From positions 124,001-188,000 of the forward strand of contig NZ_JOFL01000016.1 in assembly GCF_000719265.1 (NCBI RefSeq): DNA of 64,000 bases, in the 5' to 3' direction. A program made the position numbers and the translations under genes. Numbering within the stretch: position 1 is the first letter of the stretch; the number at the start of each line of letters is the position of its first letter. The notes beneath the pieces were generated by a model that saw only the letters and a list, made by a program, of their open reading frames with translations, had not been told where the DNA came from and ran no database searches. Shown piece after piece: positions 285 to 8,098 of this stretch. The DNA comes from Streptomyces roseoverticillatus (lineage in GTDB: Bacteria > Actinomycetota > Actinomycetes > Streptomycetales > Streptomycetaceae).

Positions 285-494
285 ATGTCCGAACATTCGG
301 CTCTCACCCGGCTCACGGGCAACGGCAACGGCGAGTGCGGAGAGAAGGACTGCCCGAACGTGTATCGCACGGCGACCGGATCGTTCGTGGTGCAGGGCGG
401 CGTGTCCGACGCCTTCACCCCGCCCGCGGGTGAAGGGCTTGTGGAAATCCCGGAGGCGGTTCTCAGGGAGGCAATCCGTGCACTTGGATGGTGA
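285..494 (+). CDS. Small DUF6879-associated protein
   Basis: This 69-aa protein is the first gene of a three-gene overlapping set. The ATG at 285 is preceded by a clear AAGGGGG ribosome binding site. The sequence has a CGEKDCPNVYRT segment and ends in EIPEAVLREAIRALGW. This is the pattern of the short proteins that commonly sit just ahead of DUF6879 genes in Streptomyces. The two cysteines at about residues 18 and 23 could bind metal or form a disulfide. Its stop codon (492-494) lies inside the next gene, which starts at 478, so the two are probably translationally coupled. The molecular function is unknown. Gene reality is well supported by the RBS, length and context. Confidence 0.75.
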   Translation: MSEHSALTRLTGNGNGECGEKDCPNVYRTATGSFVVQGGVSDAFTPPAGEGLVEIPEAVLREAIRALGW

Positions 495-993
495 CGCGTG
501 GAATGACTGCTTCGATTCCATGGAGCGTGAGGCGTGGCGGCTGGAAACGCTTCCCGTCTACACCATGCCCCAGGAAGCGGAGAAGCTGAAGCGCTTCCTC
601 GCCGGGGATAATTCTCCGGACGATTACACGTCGGCCTGGATGGATGAGGTCCGGCAGTGGGCCTCGGAAGGAAAGGGCGTCGGCAGGGTACACGTCGTGA
701 CCCGCCCGCTCTCCGACTACCTTCGGTTCGAGTTCGAGTACTACTACCGGCACCACGTGAAGGCGGGCGAGGACATCCGCATTATCGACCTCACCGACCG
801 GGAGAACCCCGGGCTGCCGGACCAGGATTTCTGGATGTTCGATGAGTCCAAAGTGGTCCTGATGAACTACCGGGGAGACGGGACGCAGATCAACCGGGAA
901 CTGTACGAGGGCGACCCGGAGCCGTACCGGCAATGGAAACGGATTGCCGTTGCCGAATCCGTGCCGTTCCTGGAGTACGTGAGCAGCGAGTGA
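478..993 (+). CDS. DUF6879 domain protein
   Basis: This is a 171-aa soluble protein of the DUF6879 family, whose members accompany XRE regulators in many actinomycetes. Family hallmarks visible here are MEREAWRLETLPVYTMPQE near the N-terminus, RPLSDYLRFEFEYYYRHHV in the middle, and GLPDQDFWMFDESKVVLMNY toward the C-terminus. The frame is open further upstream, but I chose GTG 478 because an AGGGAGG ribosome binding site lies at about 464-471 and the family begins near here. The gene overlaps the preceding small gene by 17 nt and the XRE gene by four (GTGA at 990-993), giving a tightly coupled operon. The biochemical role is unknown. A part in signalling with the XRE protein is inference from context. 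Confidence 0.88.
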   Translation: MHLDGDAWNDCFDSMEREAWRLETLPVYTMPQEAEKLKRFLAGDNSPDDYTSAWMDEVRQWASEGKGVGRVHVVTRPLSDYLRFEFEYYYRHHVKAGEDIRIIDLTDRENPGLPDQDFWMFDESKVVLMNYRGDGTQINRELYEGDPEPYRQWKRIAVAESVPFLEYVSSE

Positions 994-1823
994 CGTTCGA
1001 TCCTCAACAGCTCGGGCAGCCGAAACAGGAACTTGCTGCCCTGCTGAAAGAACTACGCAAGCGAGCCGGCCTCACTGGGGATCGGCTCGCTCGGCGTTGC
1101 AACATGTCCCAATCGAAGATCAGTCGGATCGAGAATGAGAAAGCTCAGCCGAGTCTGCTGGACCTGGAAAGAATCCTCCGGGCCGTCGTGGCGCCGCCCG
1201 AGGCCATCGAGGAGGTCATCGCCCTCGCGAGGCTGGCCAACACCGAATGGCAAGACCTGCGCTCGCTGAGGCGTAGGGGCCTGGAGAAGAAGCAGACTGA
1301 ACTTGCGGCCCTTGAATCCTCGTCTACGGAGTTCCGCTTCTTCCTGCTCTCGATGATTACAGGACTGCTGTCCACCCCTGAGTACATCCGGGCTAGCCTC
1401 GCCCATTCACCGGCCGATGTCACTAAGACGATCGCGAGGAAGCTGGAGCGGCAGGAAGTTCTTTACGACACAAAGAAGCATTTTACCTTCATCTTGACTG
1501 AGCAGGCTGCGAGGTGGCCGCTCCTGTCCCCGGCCGCGATGGCGATGCAGATCGACCGACTGGCCTCGCTAACCCACCTTACGAACGTGAAGCTCGGTGT
1601 AATCCCTATCACGGGATACAAGCCCATGGCTCCGATGGACACCTTCACCATCTATGACAACACGCTGGCCACTGTGGAGAACACGACCGGTGTTGTGATC
1701 CTGAGGGATCCAAGAGACATCGAAATGCATCTGGAGCTGTTCTCCACGCTGGAGGGTTATGCCTTGTTCGGGAAGGAAGCACGAGCCTTGTTGGCGGAGT
1801 GGTCCGCCGCTTGCCGTTCATGA
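990..1823 (+). CDS. XRE family transcriptional regulator with DUF5753 domain
   Basis: This 277-aa regulator has a helix-turn-helix at about residues 15-65 (LRKRAGLTGDRLARRCNMSQ, then SKISRIENEKAQPS). A DUF5753-type C-terminal domain with the LLSTPEYIRASL segment follows. The architecture is the WhiJ/AbaA-like class of Streptomyces regulators, which usually work with small partner proteins. GTG 990 is chosen because it overlaps the TGA of the DUF6879 gene, a classical coupling arrangement. The longer open frame from 933 would overlap that gene by 60 nt. Its direct target is not shown. The neighbouring peptide/oxygenase genes, which start about 160-400 nt downstream on the same strand, are the natural candidates. 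Confidence 0.9.
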   Translation: MTFDPQQLGQPKQELAALLKELRKRAGLTGDRLARRCNMSQSKISRIENEKAQPSLLDLERILRAVVAPPEAIEEVIALARLANTEWQDLRSLRRRGLEKKQTELAALESSSTEFRFFLLSMITGLLSTPEYIRASLAHSPADVTKTIARKLERQEVLYDTKKHFTFILTEQAARWPLLSPAAMAMQIDRLASLTHLTNVKLGVIPITGYKPMAPMDTFTIYDNTLATVENTTGVVILRDPRDIEMHLELFSTLEGYALFGKEARALLAEWSAACRS

Positions 1824-2219: not shown

Positions 2220-2357
2220 ATGGTGGAAGAGAACACCACTTCGGTTGCCCCCGAGGGGGGTGGCCTGCTCGTCGCAAAGCGGAAGATCGTGGCCGCACGC
2301 ACCCGCGCCGAGCAGGAGTCTGACGTCAGCAGTGGCCGTTCCGACGGCAACGACTGA
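2220..2357 (+). CDS. 45-aa peptide, candidate RiPP precursor
   Basis: ATG 2220 follows a GAGAGAGG purine-rich ribosome binding site and gives a 45-aa peptide. It begins MVEENTTSVAPEGGGLLV, has a basic middle (AKRKIVAARTRAEQE) and ends in the polar tail SDVSSGRSDGND. There are no cysteines, aromatic residues or membrane segment. It lies 14 nt ahead of a 2-oxoglutarate oxygenase gene, followed by a reductase and a phosphotransferase gene, on the same strand. This small-peptide-plus-tailoring-enzyme layout is typical of ribosomally made, modified peptides. A leader/core split (core near the Ser/Asp/Arg-rich C-terminus) is inference. I do not recognise the peptide family. It could instead be a small regulatory protein. 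Confidence 0.55.
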   Translation: MVEENTTSVAPEGGGLLVAKRKIVAARTRAEQESDVSSGRSDGND

Positions 2358-2371
2358 CAGGAGCGCCCACG

Positions 2372-2822
2372 TTGCCTGATGCAGCCACGTGGGCGGGGCG
2401 TCTGGGCGGGGACAGGTTCCTCGCCCAGACGTACCACCGCTCCTACGCGCACTTCCCCGGAGTTGCCGACACGGCGGGCCTGTTCTCCTGGGACGACCTG
2501 AACCGGATCATCGCCACCCAGCGACTGGAGCCGCCCCGGCTGCGCCTGTCGGCTGACGGCGAGATGGTCCCGCTGCACCGCTACGCGATCCCGACCACGA
2601 ACCGCCGTGCGGTCACCTGGTCCCGTATCCAACCGTCCGACTTCCACGCCCAGCTCAGAGACGGGGCGTCGCTGGTCCTCGATGCGCTGGAGAAGATCCA
2701 CCCCGCCGTGGGGGCGGCTGCCGAGGGGCTGGCGCGCTTCCTCGGGACTTCCGTGCAGGCCAACGTGTACGCCTCGTGGACGGAGAGGGAAGGCTTCGGC
2801 CGGCACTGGGACGACCATGATG
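2372..2822 (+). CDS. JmjC/cupin-type 2-oxoglutarate oxygenase, exon 1 (split by group II intron)
   Basis: This is the N-terminal 150 codons, plus one base of codon 151, of a ribosomal-oxygenase-like cupin protein. A TTG start at 2372 is preceded by ACAGGAGCG. The exon ends right after HWDDHD (residues 145-150), where His145 and Asp147 correspond to the first two Fe(II) ligands (HxD motif). The group II intron begins with GTGCG at 2823. Read without splicing, the frame stops at 2833, giving a truncated protein without the second metal-binding histidine. Splicing to base 5339 gives a continuous 395-aa protein reading ...HWDDHDVVVVQLHGSKRW, the normal sequence of the family. The substrate may be the peptide encoded just upstream (inference). 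Confidence 0.85.
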
Positions 2823-3491
2823 GTGCGAGCTGAAAGCTGCTCTGCCCAGTGGCGGCGGGCTGAGGTGGCCCGTCGCTCCGGCTAAGTGATCACGTAGCCG
2901 GTCTCCCAGGGAGCGAACTTCGCTGGTAACAGCGGGGGAAGAAGCCTCCCGGAAAGCCTCAAGGGCAGCACCGAGCCATGGTGAAGCCACAGGGCGGGGA
3001 GAAGATCTGACGGACGAATACAAGTGAATCCCTGATGAAGCCTCGTCATCGTCAAACCGCGTCATGGCAAGCAATCGGCGGTTAATGGCCCACCGGGTTG
3101 CAAAGCCCAAAGTGGCCGTCCGGGTCGTCGTCCGGTCGGCACGATCACCACCGGGTCCGGGGTAAAGGGGACGTCCTCGCAGGTCGCATCTGGAAAGAGT
3201 GGAACAGCGAAACCCCGTAGGAGTCCGCAGCGGATGCGCTGCGGTAAGCCGAGGGTAACCGGAGCAGAACTCTCCTGCGGGAACAGGAAGACCCGAGAAG
3301 CGAATGCCGCTGGGGCGAAAGCCCAGGGGAACACGCAGAGTTCGGCACCTCAGCCGCTGCGCATAACCCGGCGGATACCGGTCCAAGTGGCCGGGCTCGA
3401 AAGGGAGCCCACGCGGGTCTGGTGGGTCCTTGAGGACACGAAGTCTCAAAAGCCATAACCAGTAGCCGAGTTGGACAACGAAGGAGGCGAC

Positions 3492-5252
3492 ATGGAAGCA
3501 GTAGCCGACGTGGCGCTGCCTGCGCTGAACGAGGAGCTGGACGACGCCGAAGCCTGGCACAGCATCGACTGGGGCAAGGCGGAGCGAGACGTACGGCGGA
3601 TGAGGCAGCGGATCTTCAAGGCCGCGCAAGATGGGGACCTCAAGAAGGTCCGTAATCTCCAGAAGCTCATGCTCAGGTCGCGGGCGAACATCCTTGTGAG
3701 CGTTCGCCGCGTGACCCAGCTGAGCGCAGGGTGCCGTACTCCCGGAGTGGACGGGCTCAGGGCGCTGGAGCCGGCGGACCGGGGGAGGTTGGCGAGGACA
3801 CTCGCCGACGAACCCGCAGCCGACGCCAAGCCGGTACGGCGAGTGCACATTCCGAAGGCGGACGGGAAGACCCGCCCGCTCGGCATCCCGACGATTCGGG
3901 ACCGGGCGCAACAGGCCAGGGTCAAGAACGCCCTGGAGCCTGAATGGGAGGCGCGGTTCGAGGGGAAGAGCTACGGCTTTCGCCCCGGCCGCAGCTGTCA
4001 CGACGCGATCGAGAAGATTTTCCGGCTCACAGCGCGCAGCACAGCTCGCCGCACGTGGGTCCTCGACGCCGACCTGGCGGCGGCCTTCGACAGGGTCAAC
4101 CACGACCGTCTGATGGAGACCATTGACGGATTCCCCGCTGCGGCGGCGATCCGGCGATGGTTGAAGGCCGGTGTGATGGAGAACGGACGGTTCGCGCCGA
4201 CAGAGGAAGGAACTCCTCAAGGCGGCGTCATCAGTCCGCTCCTCCTGAACATTGCGCTGCACGGCATGGGAGCCGCCATCGGTGACCTTGACTCTCACGC
4301 GAAATCGCAGAGGGACAAGGTGCCGCTCCTGGTCCGGTACGCCGACGACTTCGCCGTGTTCTGCACGTCGAAGAACGAGGCCGAATGGGCGCGGGAGCAA
4401 CTGGCGCAATGGCTTGAGCCTCGCGGGCTGACCATCCACCCAGAGAAGACACGCATTGTCCAACTGGCGGATGGCTTCGACTTCCTCGGCTTCAACGTGA
4501 GGAAGTACGGCCCGAAGACGCTCATCAAGCCGAGCGCCAAGGCGGTGGAAAAGGTCAAGGAAAAGATCCGTCTGGTGATTGAGAGCAGTCCGACACAGGA
4601 CGCACTCATCCAGCGACTCAACCCCTTGATCAAGGGCTGGGCCACCTACTATCGCGGCGCGGTAGCCAAGGAGACCTTCACGGACCTGGACCACTTCGTG
4701 TGGCACAGGACGTGGCGGTGGGCCCTGCGGAGGCACCCGAGGAAGCGCCGGACCTGGGTCAAGGAACGGTACTTCGGACGTCTCCACCCTGGACGGAACG
4801 ACCACTGGGTATTCGGAGACCGCGACAGCGGGCGAATCCTGCACAAGTTCGCCTGGACCAGAATTCAAAGGCACATCCCAGTCAAGGGCACCTCATCCAA
4901 GGATGACCCGAGCCTGGACGAATACTGGGCCGCTCGAACTCGCAAGCGCAGGCATCCGGAGGCTGACGGAAAGCTCAACGTCAACCTCGCCGCCAAGCAA
5001 AAGGGGTTGTGCCCGCTCTGCGGGCTGGACCTGATCGCGGGAGCGGGATACGAGCCCGAATCCGTTCGCGAATGGGCGGACTGGTTCAAGGCCGTGCACC
5101 GCACCCTCAACAGGCACCACCTGGTCTACCGATCACTCGGCGGCAGCGACAAGCCGTCCAATCTCATGCTCATCCACGCTGACTGTCACCGGAGCCATCA
5201 CGCCGGAGACAAGAAGCGCGGACCCCTGGAGGTCAATCATGCGCGGTCCTAG
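3492..5252 (+). CDS. ltrA: Group II intron reverse transcriptase/maturase with HNH endonuclease domain
   Basis: This 586-aa multifunctional intron protein assists RNA splicing and copies the intron during retrohoming. ATG 3492 is chosen for its AAGGAGG ribosome binding site; an in-frame TTG at 3471 lacks one. Visible domains in order are RT blocks (RRVHIPKADGKTRPLGIPTI, YGFRPGRSCHDAI, GTPQGGVISPLL), the catalytic YADD at residues 283-286, a maturase/GIIM segment (LIQRLNPLIKGWATYYRG), and a C-terminal HNH nuclease. The nuclease has CPLC at residues 507-510 and HHLVYRSLGGSDKPSNL with a later Cys/His. All hallmark residues are present, so the protein looks active. It lies wholly within the intron. 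Confidence 0.95.
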   Translation: MEAVADVALPALNEELDDAEAWHSIDWGKAERDVRRMRQRIFKAAQDGDLKKVRNLQKLMLRSRANILVSVRRVTQLSAGCRTPGVDGLRALEPADRGRLARTLADEPAADAKPVRRVHIPKADGKTRPLGIPTIRDRAQQARVKNALEPEWEARFEGKSYGFRPGRSCHDAIEKIFRLTARSTARRTWVLDADLAAAFDRVNHDRLMETIDGFPAAAAIRRWLKAGVMENGRFAPTEEGTPQGGVISPLLLNIALHGMGAAIGDLDSHAKSQRDKVPLLVRYADDFAVFCTSKNEAEWAREQLAQWLEPRGLTIHPEKTRIVQLADGFDFLGFNVRKYGPKTLIKPSAKAVEKVKEKIRLVIESSPTQDALIQRLNPLIKGWATYYRGAVAKETFTDLDHFVWHRTWRWALRRHPRKRRTWVKERYFGRLHPGRNDHWVFGDRDSGRILHKFAWTRIQRHIPVKGTSSKDDPSLDEYWAARTRKRRHPEADGKLNVNLAAKQKGLCPLCGLDLIAGAGYEPESVREWADWFKAVHRTLNRHHLVYRSLGGSDKPSNLMLIHADCHRSHHAGDKKRGPLEVNHARS

Positions 5253-5262
5253 GGACCTGCTT

Positions 5263-5297
5263 GAGCCGGATGCGCCGAGAGGTGCACGTCCGGTTCT
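5263..5297 (+). ncRNA. Group II intron domain V
   Basis: The 34-35-nt hairpin starts with GAGCCGGA and closes with TCCGGTTC (eight pairs including one G-U). A short bulge, an upper stem TGCGCC/GGTGCA and a GAGA tetraloop complete it. The AGC catalytic triad is at nucleotides 2-4. This is the most conserved group II intron element and forms the splicing active site. It lies directly downstream of the maturase stop codon and is followed by the domain VI hairpin that ends at the 3' splice site. Confidence 0.93.
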
Positions 5298-5338
5298 GAG
5301 GGGGGCTCCTCCGCAGCAATGCGGAGGGCCTACCCGAC

Positions 5339-6075
5339 TCGTGGTGGTCCAACTGCACGGATCGAAGCGGTGGCGCCTGTGGGGGATGACCCGTGAGGCG
5401 CCCGCCTTCCGGGACGTGGAGTCGCCGGAGGAGCCGGAGGGCGACCCGGTGGCGGACCTCGTTCTGTCCCCGGGTGACGTGCTCTACCTGCCGCGCGGCT
5501 GGTGGCACTCGGTCACCGCTGACCAGGGGACGGAATCCCTTCACCTCACGTTCGGCACGGTCCCGCACACGGGCGCTGACCTGATGCTATGGGTTGTCGA
5601 TCAGCTCCGGGCGTCCCTCGCGTTGCGCAGGGACATTCCGCGCTTCGGCTCGCTGGCGGAACAGTCGGACTTCATCGACACCGTGCGCCGTGAGGTGGCC
5701 GACATGATGGCGGACCCGCGCCTCGTGGAGCGATGGGCGGAGTCGATCGACACGACTGACCTGGGCCACGCGATCCCGTCCCTGCCGTACGTGGACGGGC
5801 TCCCCGCACGGGGGGAGATCACGGTCAAGCTCACGGCTCCGAGGGGTCGCCTGACGGCGAACCGCGAACAGGGCACGGTCACCTTCTCGGCGGCCGGTAC
5901 CGCGTGGGACTTCGCCGAGTCCGCCGCGCCCGCGCTGGGCACGTTGCTGACCAACCAGCCGACCACACTGGGCGAGATGGCCGACTCCGCCGGGCTGGAG
6001 GTCGAGGAGGTGGCCGAACTGGTCTCCGCCCTCATCGACGGCCATGCCGTCGCAGTAGTGGGGACGGCGCTGTGA
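5339..6075 (+). CDS. JmjC/cupin-type 2-oxoglutarate oxygenase, exon 2
   Basis: This is the C-terminal part, residues 151-395 of the spliced protein. It opens with VVVVQLHGSKRWRLWG, the strand that normally follows the HxD motif. The second ferrous-iron histidine is His207 in GDVLYLPRGWWHSV. After residue 220 come the helical and winged-helix-like regions seen in ROX-type (YcfD/MINA53-like) oxygenases. The frame is open upstream into the intron, but that part is intron sequence, so the exon starts at 5339. Such enzymes use 2-oxoglutarate, O2 and Fe(II) to hydroxylate protein or peptide side chains. The stop at 6073-6075 overlaps the GTG of the aldo/keto reductase gene, so the two are coupled. 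Confidence 0.87.
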
Positions 6076-8006: not shown

Positions 8007-8014
8007 CTACTGGT

Positions 8015-8098
8015 GTCCGAGGGGGGACTTGAACCCCCACGCCCGATAAAGGGCACTAGCACCTCAAGCTAGCGCGTCTGCCATTCCGCCACCCGGAC
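8015..8098 (-). tRNA. tRNA-Leu (anticodon GAG)
   Basis: This is an 84-nt class II tRNA on the minus strand. The 5' GTCCGGG pairs with the 3' CTCGGAC as the acceptor stem. The anticodon loop CTTGAGG carries GAG, a long variable arm follows, and the T-arm contains GGTTCAAGTCC. The CCA end is not encoded. The 3' end faces the lower coordinates, so an element integrated at the 3' end of this tRNA would lie in bases 1-8,014. I see no second copy of the tRNA 3' end in the window to prove this. Confidence 0.95.

What the first reader, a model, noticed from the sequence alone, without database searches (positions are those of the whole stretch)
2823..5338. Group II intron splits a 2-oxoglutarate oxygenase gene at its metal-binding motif
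An intact group II intron (GTGCG start, domain V, AC end, maturase with YADD and HNH) lies between the HWDDHD codons and the next strand VVVVQLHGSKRW of a JmjC/cupin oxygenase. Joining 2822 to 5339 restores a 395-aa protein of normal family length. Without splicing the protein ends after 153 residues and lacks His207. Bacterial group II introns are rarely found inside conserved protein genes in the sense orientation, so enzyme production here should depend on RNA splicing.
Basis: partly seen in the sequence, partly recalled or inferred. Interest (0 to 1): 0.88.

Follow-up and report, generated by a model that had tools for sequence, protein, structure and literature searches.

The report
Mobile intron splits iron-enzyme gene
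A self-splicing type of mobile intron sits exactly inside the metal-binding motif of a conserved bacterial oxygenase gene, and its guide sequences match the codons of that motif; this is a well-preserved new case of a known but uncommon arrangement, and whether it splices in the cell still has to be shown.

Summary
A complete group IIB-type intron (2823-5338) with an intact RT/maturase/HNH protein interrupts, in sense, a JmjC/cupin oxygenase gene. Joining 2822 to 5339 gives a 395-aa protein; ten near relatives (78-97% identical) have the gene uninterrupted, with nothing missing or extra at the junction. An unbiased covariation scan over 37 insertion sites of related introns located all three exon-recognition elements, and in this intron each pairs with the flanking exons: EBS2 with the codon of iron ligand Asp147, EBS1 with His149-Asp150, EBS3 with +1. 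These guides could pair fully with 25 of 29 intronless homologues. A truncated homologue in Streptomyces spiroverticillatus, about 60% identical, ends in the same HWDDHD-GAS that our unspliced reading gives, so the site was probably hit more than once. The exons show no decay. Splicing itself is untested. Bacterial group II introns in conserved genes are known (for example Trichodesmium), and relatives of this one often sit in genes, though mostly mobile ones. I file it as a new member of a known kind, with one unusual feature: the homing site is written by a conserved catalytic motif.

The parts
2372..2822 (+). exon 1 of the JmjC/cupin oxygenase gene (TTG start; residues 1-150 plus the first base of codon 151)
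   Evidence: weak JmjC_2 match on its own, strong when joined
2823..5338 (+). group II intron, 2516 nt
   Evidence: 5' GTGCGAG, 3' CCTACCCGAC; full-length homologue L021 with the same ends; absent from 10 of 10 close homologues
5339..6075 (+). exon 2 of the oxygenase gene (rest of codon 151 to stop; contains His207)
2810..2814 (+). IBS2, GACGA (codon of Asp147 plus two bases of Asp148)
2817..2822 (+). IBS1, ATGATG (last two bases of His149, Asp150, first base of Val151)
3049..3053 (+). EBS2, TCGTC: 5 of 5 Watson-Crick pairs with IBS2
   Evidence: unbiased covariation scan
3126..3131 (+). EBS1, CGTCGT: 4 Watson-Crick + 2 G.U pairs with IBS1
   Evidence: unbiased covariation scan
3165..3165 (+). 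EBS3, A: pairs with T at +1 (5339)
   Evidence: column complementary to the +1 base in 34 of 36 sites; base read
3492..5252 (+). intron-encoded protein, 586 aa: RVT_N, RVT_1 (YADD), GIIM maturase domain, HNH; AAGGAGG just upstream
5263..5296 (+). domain V hairpin
5300..5335 (+). domain VI hairpin with bulged A at 5332 (proposed branch point)
   Evidence: branch-point role from general knowledge

Best explanation
A mobile, probably splice-competent group IIB intron with an RT/maturase/HNH protein entered this oxygenase gene by retrohoming. Its RNA guides (EBS2, EBS1, EBS3) recognised the codons of the conserved motif HWDDHDV: GAC-GA for the iron ligand Asp147 and its neighbour, ACGAYG for His149-Asp150, and T of the Val codon. 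After transcription the intron, helped by its own maturase, should fold, pair with the same exon bases, cut itself out and rejoin 2822 to 5339, restoring a 395-aa JmjC oxygenase. Shown here: boundaries, intact parts, exon pairing, exact empty sites in relatives, no decay of the exons. Inferred: that splicing and mobility actually occur, and that the enzyme is made.
For: Exact ends and intact protein. Empty sites with exact junction in 10 of 10 close homologues. EBS/IBS elements found without assuming their place: EBS1 own-site score 3.97 against 1.99 (sd 0.19, highest 2.75) when sites are shuffled, EBS2 3.60 against 1.68 (sd 0.17, highest 2.35), 5000 shuffles each; EBS3 matches 34 of 36 sites. 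Compensatory changes between this intron and its 82% relative in Amycolatopsis marina: EBS2/IBS2 TCGTC/GACGA against TAGTC/GACTA; EBS3/+1 A/T against T/A (intron base, exon base). Homologous sites could pair fully with this intron in 25 of 29 loci. Exon dN/dS 0.08-0.17 against seven intronless homologues, like the neighbouring genes; private changes 13 silent, 3 replacing, none at a metal ligand. Group II introns in conserved protein genes are documented to splice in vivo in Trichodesmium (PMC4649490, abstract and passages seen).
Against: No RNA evidence. The insertion may be too recent for decay to show, so the dN/dS result is weak. 44 other places in the genome fit the guide pattern GACGANNAYGAYGT, while the intron has one copy, so pairing alone does not explain the choice of site. 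In the Amycolatopsis relative only 4 of 6 EBS1 positions pair, and in several relatives (for example L003, L079, L081, L095) EBS1 scores 1.0 or less.
Confidence: 0.78

Rival explanations
1. The intron is a recent insertion that splices poorly or not at all, and the oxygenase gene is in effect knocked out in this strain.
For: No intron at this site in any of the ten closest homologues, so insertion is recent; a bacterial group II intron can reduce expression of its host gene (PMC6003770, abstract and passages seen); the gene is an accessory one near a tRNA hotspot, so loss may be harmless.
Against: Every splicing element tested is intact and pairs with the exons; maturase intact; exons undecayed.
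Confidence: 0.15
2. Splicing works but is partial or conditional, so that the intron acts as a brake or switch on the enzyme.
For: The unspliced message makes a 153-aa product without His207; host-gene inhibition by a group II intron has a precedent (PMC6003770).
Against: Nothing in the sequence shows regulation; a recent single insertion has had little time to be adopted.
Confidence: 0.06
3. Assembly error or chimera places the intron in the gene.
For: The genome is a 96-contig draft.
Against: The junction lies inside a 385-kb contig, is precise to the base, and obeys guide pairing derived mostly from other genomes.
Confidence: 0.01

Closest known systems
Group IIB introns with chloroplast-like (CL) proteins; nearest solved protein 6me0 (406.5 bits, residues 20-575; its source, Thermosynechococcus, and CL class are recalled)
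   Same: RT, maturase and HNH domains, domain V/VI, EBS1/EBS2 and single-base EBS3-IBS3 pairing
   Different: sits in the middle of a conserved chromosomal enzyme gene; the CL label itself was not tested by a tree
Trichodesmium erythraeum group II introns in conserved protein genes (PMC4649490)
   Same: sense insertion in a conserved protein gene, open frame restored by splicing
   Different: there splicing was shown in vivo; here it is predicted. Here the site is the metal-binding motif and no twintron is involved
Ll.LtrB in the Lactococcus relaxase gene (PMC6003770)
   Same: mobile intron inside a protein gene
   Different: that host gene belongs to a conjugative plasmid; ours is a JmjC oxygenase
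Full-length relative in Amycolatopsis marina (L021, 82% nt)
   Same: same ends and protein; upstream exon alike (ACTGGGAC shared at -18..-11)
   Different: inserted five codons before the end of an ORF of unknown function
Relatives L106 and L107 in an isochorismatase-family gene
   Same: sense, in frame, inside a DYQN stretch of an enzyme gene (only L106 was run against Pfam)
   Different: only 68% identical; different host gene and guides

Membership tests
Group II intron | catalytic domain V | tested here: met
   RF00029, 59 bits
Group II intron | domain VI with bulged A near the 3' end | tested here: met
   fold with unpaired A5332
Group II intron | GUGYG 5' end and AY 3' end (rule recalled) | tested here: met
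   GTGCG...AC
Group II intron | exon recognition by EBS1-IBS1 and EBS2-IBS2 | tested here: met
   covariation scan and pairing
Group II intron | self-splicing or maturase-aided splicing to a lariat | not testable with these tools
   needs RNA
Group IIB structural class | 3' exon read by EBS3-IBS3 rather than by delta-delta' (rule recalled) | tested here: met
   one column complementary to +1 in 34 of 36 sites; next best column 58%
Intron-encoded protein of CL class | placement in the CL clade of the RT tree | not tested
   only similarity to 6me0 and an HNH domain
JmjC/ribosomal-oxygenase-like 2-oxoglutarate oxygenase (host gene) | JmjC_2 domain across the junction | tested here: met
   107.4 bits, residues 120-231
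JmjC/ribosomal-oxygenase-like 2-oxoglutarate oxygenase (host gene) | HxD...H metal triad | tested here: met
   H145, D147, H207 align with NO66 HYD...H; ligand roles are recalled
JmjC/ribosomal-oxygenase-like 2-oxoglutarate oxygenase (host gene) | oxygenase activity and substrate | not testable with these tools
   substrate unknown

The most novel reading that the evidence does not exclude
This intron lineage homes to conserved catalytic motifs because the motif itself writes the target. For HWDDHDV every base in the guide duplex that can change silently (the third bases of an Asp, the His and an Asp codon) faces a G in the intron, which pairs with either C or U; so the gene cannot escape by synonymous change, and the intron can jump between homologues as different as 60% identity, as the S. 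spiroverticillatus fragment suggests.
Probability: 0.4. Interest if true: 0.66.

Novelty: new member of a known kind. Interest (0 to 1): 0.52.

Why it matters
It is a clean, testable case of a bacterial chromosomal enzyme gene that should need RNA splicing, with matched intronless alleles in close relatives as natural controls. The guide-to-codon match gives a simple reason why mobile introns could collect at active-site motifs, and predicts which genes and strains can be invaded. It also warns that such enzymes can be annotated as 'hypothetical' fragments, as in S. spiroverticillatus.

Tried and rejected
My first guess for EBS1 (intron 238-245, CGTCATGG, eight pairs with the exon) was wrong: much of that stretch is alike in introns with unrelated exons, and the covariation scan put EBS1 at 304-309.

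Looking for the S. spiroverticillatus locus failed. Junction pattern in the genus: 0 of 391 genomes (nearly the same draw, and our own genome was not in the list, so there was no positive control). Intron DNA in further draws: 3 of 393 at E<=1e-150 (this genome and two 67-68% relatives), 8 of 297 of the family at E<=1e-140 (this genome included), 0 of 162 at E<=1e-200 (own genome not listed, so again no positive control). Viral contigs: 3 stretches matched a maturase pattern, none a relative; junction pattern, 0. The draws overlap and do not add up to one sample. That case therefore rests on one protein fragment (P0122).

Partial cupin matches in other genomes were checked (seven regions): no intron protein in any of the 7; L112 starts near residue 150 but its upstream sequence does not look like this gene or the intron (my reading).

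Anti-phage function of the neighbours: no PADLOC match for the oxygenase exon 2, the reductase, the phosphotransferase-like or the DUF6879 protein; short matches for the helix-turn-helix gene, and one partial match of the upstream methyltransferase to mads_2 (43.3 bits); I do not read these as a system. A paper search for JmjC + aldo-keto reductase + RiPP + Streptomyces found 0; one for group II intron with cupin/oxygenase terms found 1 unrelated paper. These cover only the held library.

Codon-position test: G.U pairs in guide duplexes of in-gene introns fall at third positions in 7 of 39 cells against 2 of 97 at first and second positions (Fisher p 0.002); without this intron 5 of 36 against 2 of 89 (p 0.02). 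Duplexes with fewer than 5 (EBS1) or 4 (EBS2) pairs were left out first, and some rows are related. Phase 1 in 11 of 15 distinct hosts (p 0.002 against one third). I treat both as leads.

Full report
What was checked. The window lies in a 7.2-Mb draft genome of a Streptomyces-like bacterium (genus inferred from the best protein matches), contig 16. The intron starts GTGCGAG at 2823 and ends CCTACCCGAC at 5338. Rfam finds the domain V-VI stretch at 5261-5338 (59 bits); it folds far better than shuffles, with a bulged A at 5332. The protein 3492-5252 has all four expected domains, matches NCBI's group II maturase model at 348.8 bits against a cut-off of 300, and its best solved relative is 6me0. 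The intron has one copy in this genome.

The host gene. Exon 1 is 451 nt and exon 2 737 nt; joined they encode 395 aa with a JmjC_2 domain running across the join (107.4 bits). The split is inside the codon for Val151, directly after HWDDHD. By alignment with NO66 the metal triad is H145, D147 and H207, the last encoded in exon 2. Without splicing translation ends after HWDDHD-GAS, 153 aa. In this genome the protein search counted three matches: the two exons and one weaker match below the part of the list that was shown, so a close second copy is unlikely.

Empty sites. Of 295 genus genomes searched, 152 had some match to the oxygenase; the ten best loci outside this genome (78-97% identity) are single open frames, and their DNA runs through the junction with no base missing or added. 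Across seven intronless loci fetched at larger size, exon dN/dS is 0.08-0.17, comparable with the neighbouring genes. Among six of them and this strain, private changes here are 13 silent and 3 replacing (S6T, V106L, K373E), in line with the other strains. This argues against long-standing loss of function, but a recent insertion would look the same.

Exon recognition. I aligned the first 640 nt of 41 introns (37 distinct insertion sites; a few of these lacked a firmly located 3' end) and asked which positions pair with each intron's own upstream exon better than with others'. Two sharp signals emerged: intron 304-309 with -6..-1, and 227-231 with -13..-9; apart from overlapping frames of these two, the next best position had less than a third of the contrast (0.60 against 2.04 and 1.97). 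Shuffling the sites 5000 times never reached the observed means. One further column (intron 343) is complementary to the +1 base in 34 of 36 sites. In this intron all 12 positions pair (10 Watson-Crick, 2 G.U). Between it and its nearest fetched relative, in Amycolatopsis marina, EBS2 and IBS2 differ in step, and so do the EBS3 base and the +1 base, while EBS1 pairs at only 4 of 6 there. Not every relative pairs well: EBS1 scores are 0.4, 0.8, 1.0 and 0.0 for L003, L079, L081 and L095, perhaps from local misalignment or wrong ends.

The target is written by the protein motif. IBS2 is the codon of the iron ligand Asp147 plus two bases of Asp148; IBS1 is the end of the His149 codon, Asp150 and the first base of Val151; +1 is the second base of Val151. 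In 29 homologous loci (48-97% identical) the site could be located in 26, and 25 pair fully with this intron's guides; one has HWDDHE, and three were not located by my motif search. The three third-codon bases inside the duplexes face G in the intron, which accepts C or U. In GC-rich DNA that G is also the plain complement of the common C, so I do not claim adaptation. This gene itself carries the T form at two of the three positions, giving its two G.U pairs. Against a simple reading: 44 other places in this genome fit the guide pattern (14 forward, 30 reverse; 6 for the backward control), yet only this site is occupied, so something beyond pairing, such as contacts of the protein, chance or recency, must matter.

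A second hit at the same site. A search with the 153-aa fragment returned 10 proteins; one, P0122 of S. spiroverticillatus (149 aa, about 60% identical), ends ...THWDDHDGAS, the very ending our unspliced reading gives. Six of the other nine that I read (P0121, P0123, P0127-P0130) do not end so; P0124-P0126 were not read. The simplest reading is a related intron with the same first bases at the same codon of a divergent homologue. I could not obtain its DNA. A maturase 98% identical to ours also exists on a short contig with unknown context (P0131, 9 of 586 residues differ).

The lineage. The nearest fetched intron is in another genus (Amycolatopsis, 82% nt, 78% protein), while the relatives found in genomes of our own genus are 63-71% at the DNA level over the matched part (very short matches aside). 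That hints at horizontal spread, but the protein search also lists maturases of S. noursei (76%) and another Streptomyces (73%), and unnamed ones at 77-79%, and I built no tree. Of 34 introns whose joined flanks I read (32, one without a reading; 2), 18 lie in frame in sense within an ORF by my judgement; introns with an end not found, and L108-L111, whose flanks were not read for frames, are not in this count. Pfam was run on the joined products of nine of these relatives: eight gave a match, one of the eight (L008) below its cut-off, and one (L097) none; the matched domain clearly spans the join in four (L003, L005, L081, L106). Hosts include an XRE-DUF5753 regulator, an aldo/keto reductase (same site in two genomes), an isochorismatase-family gene (same site in two genomes), a tyrosine recombinase, TnpB/IscB-like genes and IS-type transposases (several of these names are my reading of the sequence). 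Antisense insertion was not tested in the same way.

Comparison with what is known. [quoted passage not shown] In vivo splicing within protein genes is documented in Trichodesmium (PMC4649490, abstract and passages); a large survey suggests that introns other than class C can enter coding sequences or intergenic regions (PMC8919778, passages); a Thiomargarita genome had 57 group II introns identified, many near key genes or interrupting operons (PMC4853749, passages). Listings of five searches of the held library showed no title about such an intron in a JmjC/cupin oxygenase; that is not proof that none exists. So the kind is known; the site, the full guide match to a catalytic motif and the probable second hit are, to my knowledge, new details.

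Limits. No RNA data; no tree of the intron proteins; codon-position and phase biases rest on few, partly related rows; the host enzyme's substrate is unknown.

Noticed in passing
window 8011-8098 (-) and L098 19363-19450 (-): Two tRNA-Leu(gag) genes flank the stretch that holds the split oxygenase, and a tRNA-Leu(gag) lies near the cassette in four of seven fetched intronless stretches: a likely tRNA integration hotspot.
   Followed up: partly
L098 12596-17722, about 2-7 kb upstream of the window: A gene with an MvdD-type pre-ATP-grasp domain, a PCMT-type methyltransferase and a helix-turn-helix gene lie between the hotspot repeats, resembling a graspetide-type peptide cluster (resemblance recalled).
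   Followed up: partly
window 2220-2357: A 45-aa peptide gene just before the oxygenase is 93-100% identical in seven homologous loci and has no Pfam match; with the oxygenase, aldo/keto reductase and phosphotransferase-like genes downstream it may be the substrate of a small peptide-modifying operon.
   Followed up: partly
window 478-1823: DUF6879 gene followed by an XRE/DUF5753 regulator; a gene of the same domain make-up in another genome (L003) is itself split by a relative of this intron.
   Followed up: no
L106, L107: Full-length relatives of the intron sit at the same place of an isochorismatase-family gene in two genomes of one other genus, inside a DYQN stretch.
   Followed up: partly
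L005, L083: Relatives of the intron split an aldo/keto reductase gene at the same place (DIFYSHRFDP) in two genomes of the genus (Pfam on L005 only).
   Followed up: no
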